Source: Baia soyae (GTDB lineage: Bacteria > Bacillota > Bacilli > Thermoactinomycetales > Thermoactinomycetaceae). From it: a stretch of DNA of 41,228 nt. The position numbers were made by a program, and so were the translations under genes. The stretch is from NCBI RefSeq assembly GCF_004341445.1, contig NZ_SLXV01000024.1:1-41228 (forward strand), in the 5' to 3' direction. The first letter of the stretch is position 1. Each line of letters opens with the position of its first letter. A model generated the notes under the pieces. It was not told the origin of the DNA. It worked only from the letters and a program-made list of their open reading frames with translations, and did no database searches. Positions 22,924 through 27,428 of the stretch are shown here, piece by piece.

Positions 22924-23778
22924 CTACATCTCCTTTGTAATAGCTGTGTTATTCCAAATCGAAAAAAACTTATTTTTTACATGTTCAAACATTGTATCTT
23001 TACCGCTAGTCTTATGGAGTGTGAAACGAGGTTGGTTTTTTTCAGGAATATAATCTGTAATCTCAACGACGAGCTTGCCAATTGCTCCATTTTCAAATCC
23101 GGTAATAATATATGGGAAAATAGTGCTGTATGTCTTTATCTTAAGACGTGGGATAAGTTCAAGTGGTAAATTTCTTTGTAACTGATTTAGCTTTCGGATT
23201 GAATTGCGAATCTCGTAATGAAATTCCTTTCTATCTTCTTCATCAGCGATAAATGTAAGAATAGAAAAATTTCTTTTAATCCAATCTGGATCTAAGATAA
23301 GTAAATATATCTTTCCTACATAAAGCTTATCTCTCAAAATATCATTTGAATCTTCTGCCAGATGAATCATCGAAGTTCCTGAGATAAAACAGTCACCTTC
23401 TGCTTCTAGAAGACAGCTTTTGTAGTCTAATATACGATCAGACGAGGTATTAGTAAGCTTAGTTATACCATAGGGGTGGAAATTATCATAGCTAGAAATT
23501 TGGTTACTATCTAGAATTCGGGAATCATCTATACTTGGATCAAATGGATTGTAATCAGAAAGGCCCATTTTCCAGATCGGAATTTGTAAAATGTTACATA
23601 AGCGACGGAGTGTTTGCAAATCAGTAATATTTTTAATTCCTCTTTCTACATCAGATACATAATTCACACTAACACCAATGCCACCTCCTGATTGAGGCCA
23701 TATTTCAGCTAATTGTGCTTGTGTCATTTTTAATTTCTCTCTGCCTTCACGAACAGTAATTCCATAGTGATATTCCAT
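22924..23778 (-). CDS. XRE-family transcriptional regulator
   Basis: A 284-residue regulator. The N-terminal ~75 residues form a helix-turn-helix of XRE/Cro type (LKMTQAQLAEIWPQ ... VSVNYVSDVERGIKNITDLQTLRRLCNIL). The C-terminal ~200 residues are not recognised and have a mixed alpha/beta look. It is transcribed divergently from the lasso-peptide operon, with 176 bases between the two starts, and leads the XRE-Nudix-CYTH operon. It is the obvious candidate to control the lasso cluster, but this rests on position only. Confidence 0.8.
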   Translation of the reverse strand: MEYHYGITVREGREKLKMTQAQLAEIWPQSGGGIGVSVNYVSDVERGIKNITDLQTLRRLCNILQIPIWKMGLSDYNPFDPSIDDSRILDSNQISSYDNFHPYGITKLTNTSSDRILDYKSCLLEAEGDCFISGTSMIHLAEDSNDILRDKLYVGKIYLLILDPDWIKRNFSILTFIADEEDRKEFHYEIRNSIRKLNQLQRNLPLELIPRLKIKTYSTIFPYIITGFENGAIGKLVVEITDYIPEKNQPRFTLHKTSGKDTMFEHVKNKFFSIWNNTAITKEM

Positions 23779-23954: not shown

Positions 23955-24953
23955 ATGAACAAAATTGATAAGTCTCTCCAACAAGTAGATTACAACTACT
24001 TCGTAGTAAAAGGGGATGGCAAGATGATCACCCAAAGCACGGCAAGTCGAGGAGTAAGGAACGGTTTAGAAATGCTTGATGTTAGAGAGGGACAGCATGT
24101 GATGGAGATTGGGACAGGCTCGGGATTTAGTGGGGCACTTCTCTCTACGCTAGTTGGTCCAACTGGTTCGGTTGTGTCTATCGACATTGAACCTCATTTA
24201 ACAAGTAGAGCTAGAGAGTTGTGTGAGAAAAAGGAACTCAACAATATCTTTCATGCAACCCGCGATGGTCGCAAGGGCTTTGAATCCGGAAAGCCATATG
24301 ACCGTATTATAGCGTGGACAACCCCTGAAAGTTTCCCGATTGCTTGGAGTGACCAATTACAAGAAGGCGGCCTTATCGTCATCCCATTTCAAGTTCTACC
24401 CATTGCTCGTTGTATCGTGACTGTCTGTCTAAGGAAAGTGAACGGGATTTTGCAAGGTGAGGCAGTTGCGAGCGAAAGTTACATTATGATGTCTTCAGAG
24501 CCTATGCAGGACTTGAAAGAACTTGCAGGATATCACGTTCAGGCTGAATTAGTGGGGGAAGGAGACGAAGCGGCATGGGCAAGCTCCAGATGGTTGAAAG
24601 AAAATCCAAGTCAAGAGTGGCTAGATAAATTCACTTCTACTCAACCTGAATCACTGCCTTTTGAAGAAACAGGGGAAGAAATTCGTGCATATCTACTAGG
24701 GAAGAATCCCGAAGGATTTACAAATGCATGTCACCCTGAATCCGGATCTTGGATTGGCTATAGCAGTCCAACTGGATTTGCCCTCGCTTCGGGACATCAA
24801 TCAGGACAGTGGCTTGTAACAGATTCATTGCATGCAGATGTCCTTCGTAATTGGTGGAATGAATGGAAACGGTTAGGTAAGCCCAGATTTAAGCAACTAC
24901 AGCCTGTGTTAGTAGGAGACCAGGTTAAAGTAAAATTGAAGGGAGGTGAATAA
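23955..24953 (+). CDS. Lasso-peptide-associated PIMT-like methyltransferase
   Basis: A 332-residue SAM-dependent methyltransferase homologous to protein L-isoaspartyl O-methyltransferase. It has ITQSTASRGVRNGLEML, motif I VMEIGTGSGFSGALL (49-63), SIDIEP (75-80) as the ribose-binding acidic site, and PYDRIIAWTTPESFP with QLQEGGLIVIPF. It is ~110 residues longer than housekeeping PIMT, with an extra C-terminal domain (from ~165). That is as in PIMTs of the cellulonodin-2 and lihuanodin clusters, which methylate a ring Asp of the folded lasso peptide so that it closes to aspartimide. It begins the operon (GAGGGG before ATG), and the precursor starts two bases after its stop. Confidence 0.88.
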   Translation: MNKIDKSLQQVDYNYFVVKGDGKMITQSTASRGVRNGLEMLDVREGQHVMEIGTGSGFSGALLSTLVGPTGSVVSIDIEPHLTSRARELCEKKELNNIFHATRDGRKGFESGKPYDRIIAWTTPESFPIAWSDQLQEGGLIVIPFQVLPIARCIVTVCLRKVNGILQGEAVASESYIMMSSEPMQDLKELAGYHVQAELVGEGDEAAWASSRWLKENPSQEWLDKFTSTQPESLPFEETGEEIRAYLLGKNPEGFTNACHPESGSWIGYSSPTGFALASGHQSGQWLVTDSLHADVLRNWWNEWKRLGKPRFKQLQPVLVGDQVKVKLKGGE

Positions 24954-24955
24954 GA

Positions 24956-25060
24956 ATGGAATATCAAACTCCAGAATTGGTTGAGATTGGCTCTTTTGAA
25001 GAGATGACTCTAGGAACAAAGCTCAACGACACAGCAGACGAAAATTCACATCGTTGGTAG
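24956..25060 (+). CDS. Lasso peptide precursor
   Basis: A 34-codon gene, below usual size cut-offs. The leader, MEYQTPELVEIGSFEEMTL, carries the lasso leader motif: Tyr3, Pro6, Leu8, Gly12 and the penultimate leader Thr18 needed for cleavage. The predicted core is GTKLNDTADENSHRW (15 residues). Gly1 would be joined to Asp9, giving a nine-residue ring. Asp6-Thr7 in the ring is the expected site for methylation and aspartimide formation by the PIMT. The loop and tail are ENSHRW, with His, Arg and Trp as possible steric plugs. GGAGGTG of the preceding gene's last codons serves as its ribosome binding site, at seven bases. Confidence 0.9.
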   Translation: MEYQTPELVEIGSFEEMTLGTKLNDTADENSHRW

Positions 25061-25071
25061 AAAAAAGAGTA

Positions 25072-25115
25072 GGGGGACGCTGCTTGCTTTGAGAGGTCAG
25101 CAGCGTCTCTCTTTT
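25072..25115 (+). terminator. Attenuator-like hairpin between precursor and cyclase
   Basis: GACGCTGCT (25076-25084) pairs with AGCAGCGTC (25099-25107), and wobble pairs extend the stem to 25072-25111. TTTT follows. It lies 11 bases after the precursor stop and 17 bases before the cyclase start (TTG). It probably lets part of the transcription through, keeping the precursor in excess over the enzymes. Confidence 0.75.
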
Positions 25116-25132
25116 ACTTAGGAGGAACCCGA

Positions 25133-26749
25133 TTGTTTCTTGGACACTATGAAGGAAGTTCGCTATCTTTTGAAGTTATGCAAACTCCGCACCTACATCT
25201 CAAAGAAAACGGGGCTGAATGTTACCTCATTGGTGAAATTCTATCAGATCCAGATGAGATTGATTACGCCTTTCACCAGTTTATAAGGGATCGTCAACCA
25301 GAGCATATCCTGTTTCTTCGTGGAAACTATCAAACGATTATTCGTATATCGAATGAGTTATGGATGTTCTCTGATTTGGCGAATGTGAGACCCCTTTATC
25401 ATGCGAAACAAGGAAATTCATTTCTTTTCTCTTCTCATCTTACACCGATTCAAAAGCAAGTACAATCTACTTGTAATGTATCATGGTTCCAGCGTTCGCT
25501 ATCCGTTAGCGGGTTTTGTATAGAAGAAGAAACTCCCTATCAGCGCATCAAGAGAGTTCCGTCCGGATTTGGACTTTCTATAAGTCCACAAGGAGAACGG
25601 GTTGTACAAGCATGGAATGTGGATCAAGAAGTTCCACTGTCTTGGGAAGAAGCTCAGCGAGATTTACGAGAAGAATTAACGGCTTCTGTCCGATTACGTT
25701 GTCAGGGAAAGCGAGTGACGAGTGATCTAAGTGGTGGGCTTGATTCTTCTACGATTACGTGGATTGCTTCTAGAGAAAAGCCTATTAAAGCACTGACGAT
25801 TATTGGGAAAGAGGAAGACGAAGATGGAAAAATAGCCAGAGAAGTCGCAGGGGTACAGGAAAACATTCAACATTTTATCTGGCAACAGGATGATATCCCG
25901 CTCATTTATTCTCATATGGATCAGATTCGGACAGATACCCCTATTTCATTTCTCTGGTCAGCTAATAAAGTAAAAAAGAAAATGAAGTGGGCGCGTGAAA
26001 ATCAATCCGAAGTCCATTTTAGTGGTGAGGGTGGCGACACCGTTTTAGGTGCGGATTTTACGTATCTCGTTGATCTGCTTCGTCAAGGAAAGTGGAAAAC
26101 GTTTTATTCTCACGTATATGGATGGGCGGTGCAGAAAAAAGAGTCTCCATTTCTTTGGATCTCGGGGGCACTTCGTAGGGTATTTCATCTTCCTTTTCAT
26201 CCACGACAAAGGAATCCGCTTTCGACTGTAGGCAATCAAGCAGATTGGTTCAAATTCAGTCCAATGGTCCGTGATGTGCGATTTTCACGATATCAGGGAG
26301 TCAACAAAACCATGTACGGAATCCAATATCTTGGCTATGTCTCGCAGGGTTTAAAGGATTTGGCTAATCAAGAGCAAGTGCTCCTATGTGTCCCCTATCT
26401 AGATCATAATGTGATTCGGATTTGTATGCGTACTCCATCAGAGCTAAAGATGAATCCGCATGAACTAAAACCCTTGTTAAAGGGAGCTTTCCAAGATGAA
26501 TTGCCGTCCTCTCTCTTAAACCGCAATACAAAAGGCGATTATACGTCTGATGTCTATTACGGGATGAGGCAACAGTTTTCATGGTTTCAGGAGCATTTTC
26601 GAGAAATGGCTTTATCGGACATGGGGTTAGTTGATCTTCCGGCATTTCAAGAATGTGTACATCGTTTATCACTCGGAGTGCCTGTGAAGCTTCCAGAATT
26701 CCATCATACGCTTTCATTAGAACTGTGGCTTCGTCAAAACGTTAGATAG
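25133..26749 (+). CDS. Lasso peptide cyclase (asparagine-synthetase-like, C protein)
   Basis: A 538-residue homologue of AsnB that adenylates the ring acidic side chain and joins it to the core N-terminus. The N-terminal glutaminase-like domain starts MFLGHYEG and lacks the catalytic Cys2, as is typical for lasso cyclases. The synthetase domain has the PP-loop SDLSGGLDSS (197-206) and SGEGGDTVLGAD (297-308). The start is a TTG seven bases after AGGAGG; no better ATG is near, and the protein would lose its first strands if started later. It follows the precursor hairpin, and the B1 gene starts 19 bases after it. Confidence 0.9.
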   Translation: MFLGHYEGSSLSFEVMQTPHLHLKENGAECYLIGEILSDPDEIDYAFHQFIRDRQPEHILFLRGNYQTIIRISNELWMFSDLANVRPLYHAKQGNSFLFSSHLTPIQKQVQSTCNVSWFQRSLSVSGFCIEEETPYQRIKRVPSGFGLSISPQGERVVQAWNVDQEVPLSWEEAQRDLREELTASVRLRCQGKRVTSDLSGGLDSSTITWIASREKPIKALTIIGKEEDEDGKIAREVAGVQENIQHFIWQQDDIPLIYSHMDQIRTDTPISFLWSANKVKKKMKWARENQSEVHFSGEGGDTVLGADFTYLVDLLRQGKWKTFYSHVYGWAVQKKESPFLWISGALRRVFHLPFHPRQRNPLSTVGNQADWFKFSPMVRDVRFSRYQGVNKTMYGIQYLGYVSQGLKDLANQEQVLLCVPYLDHNVIRICMRTPSELKMNPHELKPLLKGAFQDELPSSLLNRNTKGDYTSDVYYGMRQQFSWFQEHFREMALSDMGLVDLPAFQECVHRLSLGVPVKLPEFHHTLSLELWLRQNVR

Positions 26750-26768
26750 CATGAAAGGAGCAACGAGA

Positions 26769-27029
26769 ATGAAACTCGCTTTACCCGACCATGTACAGAT
26801 ATCTGAAGTGGATGGGAAGTACGTTCTACTTGATTGTCGGGGTAACTTCTTTTACACGGTGAGCCAATCTGGAGCTGAATTTATCGAACAAGTTCGACAA
26901 CATGGCGATATGAGAAGAGCGATTGAGAAGATTAGCATGGACCACTTGGTTTTGTTTGAAAGAGTACAAGATGAGATGACTTCTTTCGCAGATCATCTCA
27001 TTCAGAAGGGATTGTTAATTAAAACATGA
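26769..27029 (+). CDS. Lasso RiPP recognition element protein (B1, PqqD-like)
   Basis: An 86-residue PqqD-like leader-binding protein. It begins MKLALPDHVQISEVDGKYVL, with YVLLDCRGNFFYTVSQSGAEF matching the RRE pattern, and a helical C-terminal half. It binds the precursor leader and delivers it to the B2 peptidase. I place the start at the second ATG (26769), since AAAGGAG lies between the two ATGs at an ideal distance. An ATG at 26751 would add six residues. Its stop overlaps the B2 start by four bases (ATGA). Confidence 0.87.
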   Translation: MKLALPDHVQISEVDGKYVLLDCRGNFFYTVSQSGAEFIEQVRQHGDMRRAIEKISMDHLVLFERVQDEMTSFADHLIQKGLLIKT

Positions 27030-27388
27030 TACGAGCTTGGCTTTCACTTTTATTTGCTTCCTTTTTGATCAAAACGCAAAACTTAGAGAGGCTAAAACCG
27101 TTTCTCATCCAACGAAAATTGTCTTGTAAGGAAGCATGGTCATTTGAAGAGGCAGAACAAGCCTTTATACAAATCGAACAAGCAAAGCGCTTTTTTATTT
27201 CTCGAACGGCTTGTTTAGAACAGTCTTTGGCCTTGTTTCTGTTTGCTACATCGCAAGGGAAATCAATTGATTGGTGCGTAGGGATACGGCTCGCTCCATT
27301 TGCTTCCCATGCATGGGTGGAAGCAGAAGGGATAACGGTCCGAGAGTTAGAGAGTGTCCAAAAGTACAGAAAGATTTTAGTGGTCTAG
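27026..27388 (+). CDS. Lasso peptide leader peptidase (B2, transglutaminase-like)
   Basis: A 120-residue cysteine protease of the transglutaminase-like B2 family that cuts the leader after the conserved Thr-x. The catalytic Cys is Cys63 in SRTACLEQSLAL, and the His is His95 in FASHAWVEAEG. The acidic partner is probably Glu107 in TVRELES, where many family members have Asp. The length is normal for a free-standing B2. It is the last gene of the operon, translationally coupled to B1. Confidence 0.87.
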   Translation: MIRAWLSLLFASFLIKTQNLERLKPFLIQRKLSCKEAWSFEEAEQAFIQIEQAKRFFISRTACLEQSLALFLFATSQGKSIDWCVGIRLAPFASHAWVEAEGITVRELESVQKYRKILVV

Positions 27389-27398
27389 ATCAAAAAAA

Positions 27399-27428
27399 GA
27401 CTGTAGACCACCATCATAGTCTACAGTC
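27399..27428. terminator. Terminator between lasso operon and etfA
   Basis: GACTGTAGAC (27399-27408) pairs perfectly with GTCTACAGTC (27419-27428). The T-run is strong on the minus strand (seven A at 27392-27398 on the plus strand), so it chiefly terminates etfA. On the plus strand it ends the lasso operon but lacks a good T-run. Confidence 0.85.

What the first reader, a model, noticed from the sequence alone, without database searches (positions are those of the whole stretch)
23955..27388. Complete lasso-peptide cluster with a PIMT-type methyltransferase
Five plus-strand genes in tight order encode a PIMT-like methyltransferase, a 34-residue precursor, an AsnB-like cyclase, a PqqD-like RRE and a transglutaminase-like peptidase. 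PIMT-bearing lasso clusters are known (cellulonodin-2, lihuanodin) and make an aspartimide in the ring. This precursor has its own core sequence and so probably encodes an undescribed member. Two features stand out: the methyltransferase leads the operon, before the precursor, and all genes are coupled or nearly so.
Basis: partly seen in the sequence, partly recalled or inferred. Interest (0 to 1): 0.93.

Follow-up and report, generated by a model that had tools for sequence, protein, structure and literature searches.

The report
Aspartimide lasso-peptide gene cluster
Five neighbouring genes look able to make a small knotted (lasso) peptide carrying a reactive ring called an aspartimide; it is one more member of a family already described in related heat-loving bacteria, with its own peptide sequence.

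Summary
The cluster is real and complete: methyltransferase (M), 34-aa precursor (A), lasso cyclase (C), RRE (B1) and leader peptidase (B2). The predicted core GTKLNDTADENSHRW has the published signature of aspartimidylated lasso peptides ("lassimiditides": lihuanodin, cellulonodin-2): DTAD at core positions 6-9 (Asp6 methylated, Asp9 closes the ring). M has the C-terminal extension and the WxxxGxP motif. Function is inferred; nothing was expressed. M-first order was found in 14 of 14 clusters of its bacterial family with both M and a DTAD precursor, against M-last in 7 of 7 actinobacterial ones. The genes are not all coupled: A and C are 72 bp apart with a strong stem-loop between them, and a stem-loop follows A in 14 of 14 family clusters (z-scores modest in four). 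The likely effect is more M and A than C-B1-B2. The core is in no paper text searched, but supplementary lists of the 48-67 known clusters could not be read. New member of a known kind; modest interest.

The parts
23955..24953 (+). M: PIMT-like O-methyltransferase with C-terminal extension, 332 aa
   Evidence: PF01135 E 7e-28; WKRLGKP = WxxxGxP; predicted fold aligns to T. maritima PIMT 1DL5 over model residues 1-331, while the other PIMT chains listed end at residue 179-232
24956..25060 (+). A: lasso precursor, 34 aa; leader 24956-25012, core 25013-25057 (GTKLNDTADENSHRW)
   Evidence: NF033521 lasso leader 27 bits vs cut-off 19; Y3, P6, G12, T18 and D25-T26-A27-D28 invariant in 9 aligned precursors
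25067..25119 (+). stem-loop with a short T-tract between A and C: candidate partial terminator/attenuator
   Evidence: -29.2 kcal/mol, z -3.5, lower than 20 of 20 control windows; terminator-scan hit 25091-25111, one of 8 in the region against 3.1 expected
25133..26749 (+). C: AsnB-like lasso cyclase, 538 aa, TTG start
   Evidence: PF00733; NF033561 248 bits, cut-off 300; S, G, G, D, S of SGGLDS invariant in 10 cyclases
26769..27029 (+). B1: PqqD-like RRE (alternative start 26751)
   Evidence: PF05402 23.7 vs 23.4 bits; RBS context
27026..27388 (+). B2: transglutaminase-like leader peptidase, 120 aa
   Evidence: NF033537 72.6 vs 33 bits; Cys63 and His95 invariant in 10 B2 proteins

Best explanation
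A lassimiditide cluster. B1 (RRE) binds the leader, B2 cuts it off after Thr-Leu (Thr at -2), and C joins the new Gly1 to Asp9, closing a 9-residue ring threaded by the short ENSHRW tail. M then methylates Asp6 of the threaded lasso, and attack by the backbone amide of Thr7 expels methanol and gives an aspartimide. Shown here: the genes, families, motifs, conservation and gene order. Inferred by homology to lihuanodin and cellulonodin-2: every chemical step, ring size, threading and order of events. Further inference: the stem-loop after A partly stops transcription, so M and A exceed C-B1-B2, which would keep the product re-methylated whenever its aspartimide hydrolyses back to Asp.
For: Families of all five genes; DTAD at core 6-9, the motif that a 2026 review gives as shared by both characterised lassimiditides (PMC13001092, section 8); WxxxGxP in M (review sections 8 and 11); C-terminal extension matched by fold to 1DL5; B2 Cys/His and cyclase SGGLDS conserved; D-T-A-D and Thr at -2 invariant in 9 aligned precursors while core positions 2, 4, 5 and most of the tail vary; M together with a DTAD precursor in 14 Thermoactinomycetaceae and 7 actinobacterial clusters.
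Against: No expression or mass data. The cyclase is below the curated cut-off of its best NCBIfam model, though the 4 cyclases of other such clusters tested are below it too. Strict WxxxGxP is present in 9 of 13 aligned methyltransferases (the W in all 13; counted by eye), and the nearest relative (L033, 79% identical) has WKKLDKP, so the motif is not an absolute marker. Homologues of M that group inside the lasso-linked set occur without lasso genes nearby. The attenuator role is untested: the T-tract is short, the z-score of the fold is only -0.8 to -1.3 in 4 of 14 family clusters, and the signal is mixed in actinobacteria.
Confidence: 0.92

Rival explanations
1. The lasso is made, but M ends at Asp or isoaspartate: the aspartimide is only a passing intermediate, as in some lanthipeptide, graspetide and pamtide systems.
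For: Other RiPP PIMTs give mainly isoAsp after hydrolysis, e.g. the type II pamtide FcaA and fuscimiditide (PMC10787088 passages; PMC13001092 passages).
Against: The core has Thr7 after Asp6; the review says this Thr makes lihuanodin hydrolyse back to Asp and that the lassimiditide aspartimides stay stable in water. DTAD is invariant in 9 aligned precursors.
Confidence: 0.06
2. M is a protein-repair PIMT that happens to sit beside an ordinary lasso cluster.
For: PCMT family match.
Against: Far below the cut-offs of canonical PIMT models (95.1 vs 188 and 91.8 vs 159 bits); extra C-terminal domain; 2-nt gap to A; directly upstream of a DTAD precursor in 14 of 14 family clusters that have both genes.
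Confidence: 0.02
3. The cluster is silent or decayed and makes nothing.
For: The second cluster in the same genome (contig C32, L036) has its cyclase matched in two overlapping pieces, so decay may happen in this genome; no transporter gene adjoins the window cluster (translations judged by eye); promoter-like sites do not exceed chance, 3 found against 8.0 expected.
Against: All five frames are open with plausible start sites; C and B2 are 91% and 93% identical to those of G001.
Confidence: 0.05

Closest known systems
Lihuanodin (Lihuaxuella thermophila), lassimiditide
   Same: DTAD at core 6-9, PIMT homologue with WxxxGxP, lasso enzymes (review); a review of Thermoactinomycetaceae lists Lihuaxuella as a lasso-peptide producer of that family (passages)
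   Different: The published core letters and gene order could not be read (paper not held), so residue differences are not stated. Whether one of the unnamed relatives here (e.g. L034, core GSKYSDTADESSYRW) is that organism was not established.
Cellulonodin-2 (Thermobifida cellulosilytica), lassimiditide
   Same: DTAD motif and PIMT homologue according to the review
   Different: From an actinobacterium. In the 7 actinobacterial clusters with a DTAD precursor read here, M comes last (A-C-B1-B2-M) and the core has 15 or 16 residues; the Thermobifida cluster itself was not read.
Shimazuellins (Shimazuella)
   Same: S. kribbensis DSM 45090 (L055, the same place as L039) carries an M-A-C-B1-B2 cluster with core GSKYDDTADKNAHRY; PMC9774768 (passages) reports shimazuellins II and III as tail-less class II lasso peptides in S. 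kribbensis
   Different: That paper's main text holds 'methyltransferase' 0 times. That shimazuellin II or III is this very peptide is my inference.
Thermotoga maritima PIMT (PDB 1DL5)
   Same: Same two-domain architecture
   Different: According to the review its motif is WxxxG, not WxxxGxP; the relative placement of the domains differs from the predicted M (rmsd 9.0)

Membership tests
Lasso peptide cluster | precursor with YxxPxLxxxG leader motif and Thr at -2 (motif recalled; model tested) | tested here: met
   MEYQTPELVEIG...MTL|G; NF033521 over its cut-off
Lasso peptide cluster | AsnB-like cyclase, PqqD-like RRE and transglutaminase-like B2 | tested here: met
   (cyclase below the NF033561 cut-off; Pfam match clear)
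Lassimiditide, group 1 | D(T/S)AD at core positions 6-9 | tested here: met
   GTKLN-DTAD-ENSHRW; definition from PMC13001092 section 8
Lassimiditide, group 1 | PIMT homologue in the cluster with C-terminal extension | tested here: met
   332 aa; fold aligned to 1DL5 over model residues 1-331
[quoted passage not shown]
   WKRLGKP
Lassimiditide, group 1 | threaded lasso bearing an aspartimide at Asp6 | not testable with these tools
   needs expression, MS and NMR
Canonical protein-repair PIMT | score over curated PIMT models | tested here: not met
   NF001453 95.1 vs 188 bits; TIGR00080 91.8 vs 159 bits
Graspetide-type or FxLD-system methyltransferase | score over TIGR04188 or TIGR04364 | tested here: not met
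   100.7 vs 380 and 107.9 vs 320 bits

The most novel reading that the evidence does not exclude
In Thermoactinomycetaceae the last-acting enzyme (M) and its substrate (A) are placed together ahead of an internal stem-loop/terminator, so M is made in excess over the lasso-forming enzymes and keeps the lasso in its aspartimide form by repeated re-methylation. Actinobacterial clusters, with M at the far end, are wired differently.
Probability: 0.3. Interest if true: 0.45.

Novelty: new member of a known kind. Interest (0 to 1): 0.3.

Why it matters
It adds a peptide with its own ring and tail residues to a family with only two characterised products according to the 2026 review. The comparison of 9 precursors shows which core residues vary (2, 4, 5 and most of the tail) and which do not (G1, K3, D6-T7-A8-D9). 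Two lineage-specific gene orders, with a stem-loop after A in the Firmicute clusters and in some actinobacterial ones, give a testable idea about how aspartimide occupancy is set. The biological role of these peptides was not addressed here.

Tried and rejected
Divergent XRE-type regulator (22924-23778) as part of the cluster: rejected. It sits next to the Nudix gene in L038 too, matches 11 of 23 family genomes including some without an M match (G004, G017), and has no match in G001, whose cluster is closest.

Conserved neighbourhood: the nearest cluster (L033, 11 kb held) shares none of the 8 window flanking genes tested.

Named genomes: the single genome-contig scan with the M alignment kept the best 80 of 570 relatives, mostly at 28-41% identity over the methyltransferase core. 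I inspected six of the 80 for lasso genes (L055, L056, L057, L058, L071, L091); only L055 (Shimazuella kribbensis) and L056 (Nocardiopsis) had them. The other 74 were not inspected.

Core search: 'DTADENSHRW' and 'GTKLNDTAD' occur in no paper of the library; 3 papers hold 'DTADEN', all unrelated by title. Terms from cores of relatives: 8 papers, all unrelated by title.

PDB by sequence: the precursor matched only the TbiA leader peptide (E 0.98); a lihuanodin chain of under 20 residues would not be in that library.

Papers on hairpins between A and C in lasso clusters: two searches (12 of 608 papers listed, 1) showed nothing on point. A precedent for internal terminators setting stoichiometry exists for ABC transporters (PMC9045158, listing and start of abstract only). 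From memory, not from a call: A-C intergenic hairpins have been noted in proteobacterial lasso clusters.

Zn-ribbon-like protein upstream of a lone M homologue on contig C53 as a cysimiditide precursor: left open. Its Cys pattern differs from the published CxxCxGxG, and paralogues exist elsewhere in the genus.

Inverted repeat at 27399-27428 as a repeat family: rejected, one site in the genome.

Rows dropped from the gene-order count: L055 (same record as L039), L182 (precursor without DTAD, no M detected), L183 (DTAD precursor, M fragment only), L041/L043/L044/L045/L049/L051/L052 (M homologue without lasso genes), L169 and L057 (M homologue only; L057), L184 (no hit). L168, L175 and L177-L181 lacked a pattern-matched precursor (L168 and L175 are cut by contig ends), but M lay downstream of B2 in all 7. 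Gaps within the 14 family clusters: C undetected in L047 and only a piece in L048; B2 undetected in L048; B1 undetected by tblastn in L046, L047, L048 and L050; C in two pieces in L036 and L039. Within the 7 actinobacterial ones: C in two pieces in L173 and L176; L172 and L173 carry the same precursor, so they are hardly independent.

Full report
What is there. The window is one whole contig (C24) of a 2.92-Mb genome. A genome listed as the same family (G021) has a contig of the same length, and with the same M match, as Shimazuella kribbensis DSM 45090 (606,309 bases), which by that link places the window in Thermoactinomycetaceae. Five plus-strand genes fill 23955-27388: M, A, C, B1, B2. The precursor is MEYQTPELVEIGSFEEMTL|GTKLNDTADENSHRW. 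Judged by eye from the translations of ORFs of 100 aa or more, no transporter gene adjoins the cluster.

Family. The 2026 review PMC13001092 (abstract, sections 8, 10 and 11, and passages) describes lassimiditides: two characterised members, a shared DTAD motif at core 6-9, Asp6 modified, Asp9 closing the ring, and a WxxxGxP motif in the methyltransferase. The features that a sequence can show are met here. PMC10787088 (passages) counts 67 such clusters and describes the C-terminal extension. The predicted structure of M (mean pLDDT 87.6) aligns with the two-domain T. maritima enzyme 1DL5 over model residues 1-331 (265 aligned, Z 22.0, rmsd 9.0, so the placement of the domains differs), while the other PIMT chains listed end at residue 179-201, or 232 in one (1vbf).

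Comparison. Of 101 genomes (the window's own and 100 relatives), 30 had an M match at E 0.001 or better; all with E below 1e-8 belong to the same family. Twenty stretches around M homologues were read, and 17 more later. With M and a DTAD precursor there are 14 Thermoactinomycetaceae clusters: window, L033-L040, L042, L046, L047, L048, L050. M lies directly upstream of A in 14 of 14. Of the stretches drawn with a Nocardiopsis M from 200 actinobacterial genomes (15 matched), 7 with a DTAD precursor (L056, L170-L174, L176; L172 and L173 share one precursor) all read A-C-B1-B2-M. A precursor search of 398 genomes of the class at E 1e-5 matched 8 genomes, all of the same family. So the M-first order belongs to the lineage, not to this cluster. 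Whether the published lihuanodin cluster is M-first was not verified, since its paper is not held.

Operon wiring. A and C are 72 bp apart. The first 70 nt after A fold to -29.2 kcal/mol in the window (z -3.5). Across the 14 family clusters the fold is lower than all 20 downstream control windows in 12; of the other two, L048 has a clear 12-bp stem but 1 of 20 controls as low, and L038 has 2 of 20 as low because its long stem lies further away, within the 145 nt before C. The z-scores are weak in four (L035 -1.0, L036 -0.8, L042 -1.1, L038 -1.3). Most stem sequences differ between clusters while the position is kept. In the 7 actinobacterial clusters the signal is mixed: L170 (z -3.5, 0 of 20 controls as low), L171 (-3.2, 1 of 20), L174 (-6.8, 0 of 20) and L176 (-3.1, 2 of 20) fold strongly; L172 (-1.1, 1 of 20), L173 (-0.7, 1 of 20) and L056 (0.0, 11 of 20) do not stand out. 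Attenuation is therefore an inference, stronger for the Firmicute clusters.

Tree. In a tree of 31 methyltransferases M groups with L033 (100/100); the 10 clusters of the main type plus three lone methyltransferases (L041, L043, L044) form one supported set (98/96), which suggests loss of lasso genes or change of role in the lone copies. The actinobacterial Ms lie on a separate supported side (100/99).

Conclusion. A complete, probably functional lassimiditide cluster with its own core, ordinary in architecture for its lineage. Its chemistry is inferred from homology. Predicted monoisotopic [M+H]+: linear 1743.80, lasso 1725.79, methyl ester 1739.81, aspartimide lasso 1707.78.

Noticed in passing
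G000 contig C32 (L036:5116-8122, - strand): A second M-A-C-B1-B2 cluster in the same genome, core GRKFADTADENAYQH; its cyclase is matched in two overlapping pieces, so it may be broken or misassembled. The relative in G001 (L035) is matched in one piece.
   Followed up: partly
L041:2645-3628, L043:4133-5116, L044:4351-5322: Methyltransferases 45-48% identical to M, grouping inside the lasso-linked set in the tree, but with no lasso genes found in the stretches read; L041 lies among transposase-like genes (by eye).
   Followed up: partly
L049:1634-3195, L050:3678-7233, L051:3400-4926: Three genomes of one genus share two small proteins (one with a CxC...CxxC Zn-ribbon-like pattern around an I(D/N)PD stretch) directly before a PIMT homologue; only L050 carries lasso genes after it (A, C, B2 matched; a B1-like ORF by eye).
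   Followed up: partly
L046:4956-5246: Two tandem precursors; the first has Asn-Ile (GNRETNIADLKEYYN) where the second has the modifiable Asp-Thr (GDEERDTADLKEYYY).
   Followed up: no
L182:5375 (G013): A precursor with a closely similar leader but no DTAD core (GKRLVDIVDEHECQNEKE), with an RRE and no methyltransferase detected in the 11 kb read.
   Followed up: no
L038:4888-5181 and L039:7259-7570: Partial second copies of the methyltransferase lie just downstream of B2, as if M had once been present at both ends of the cluster.
   Followed up: no
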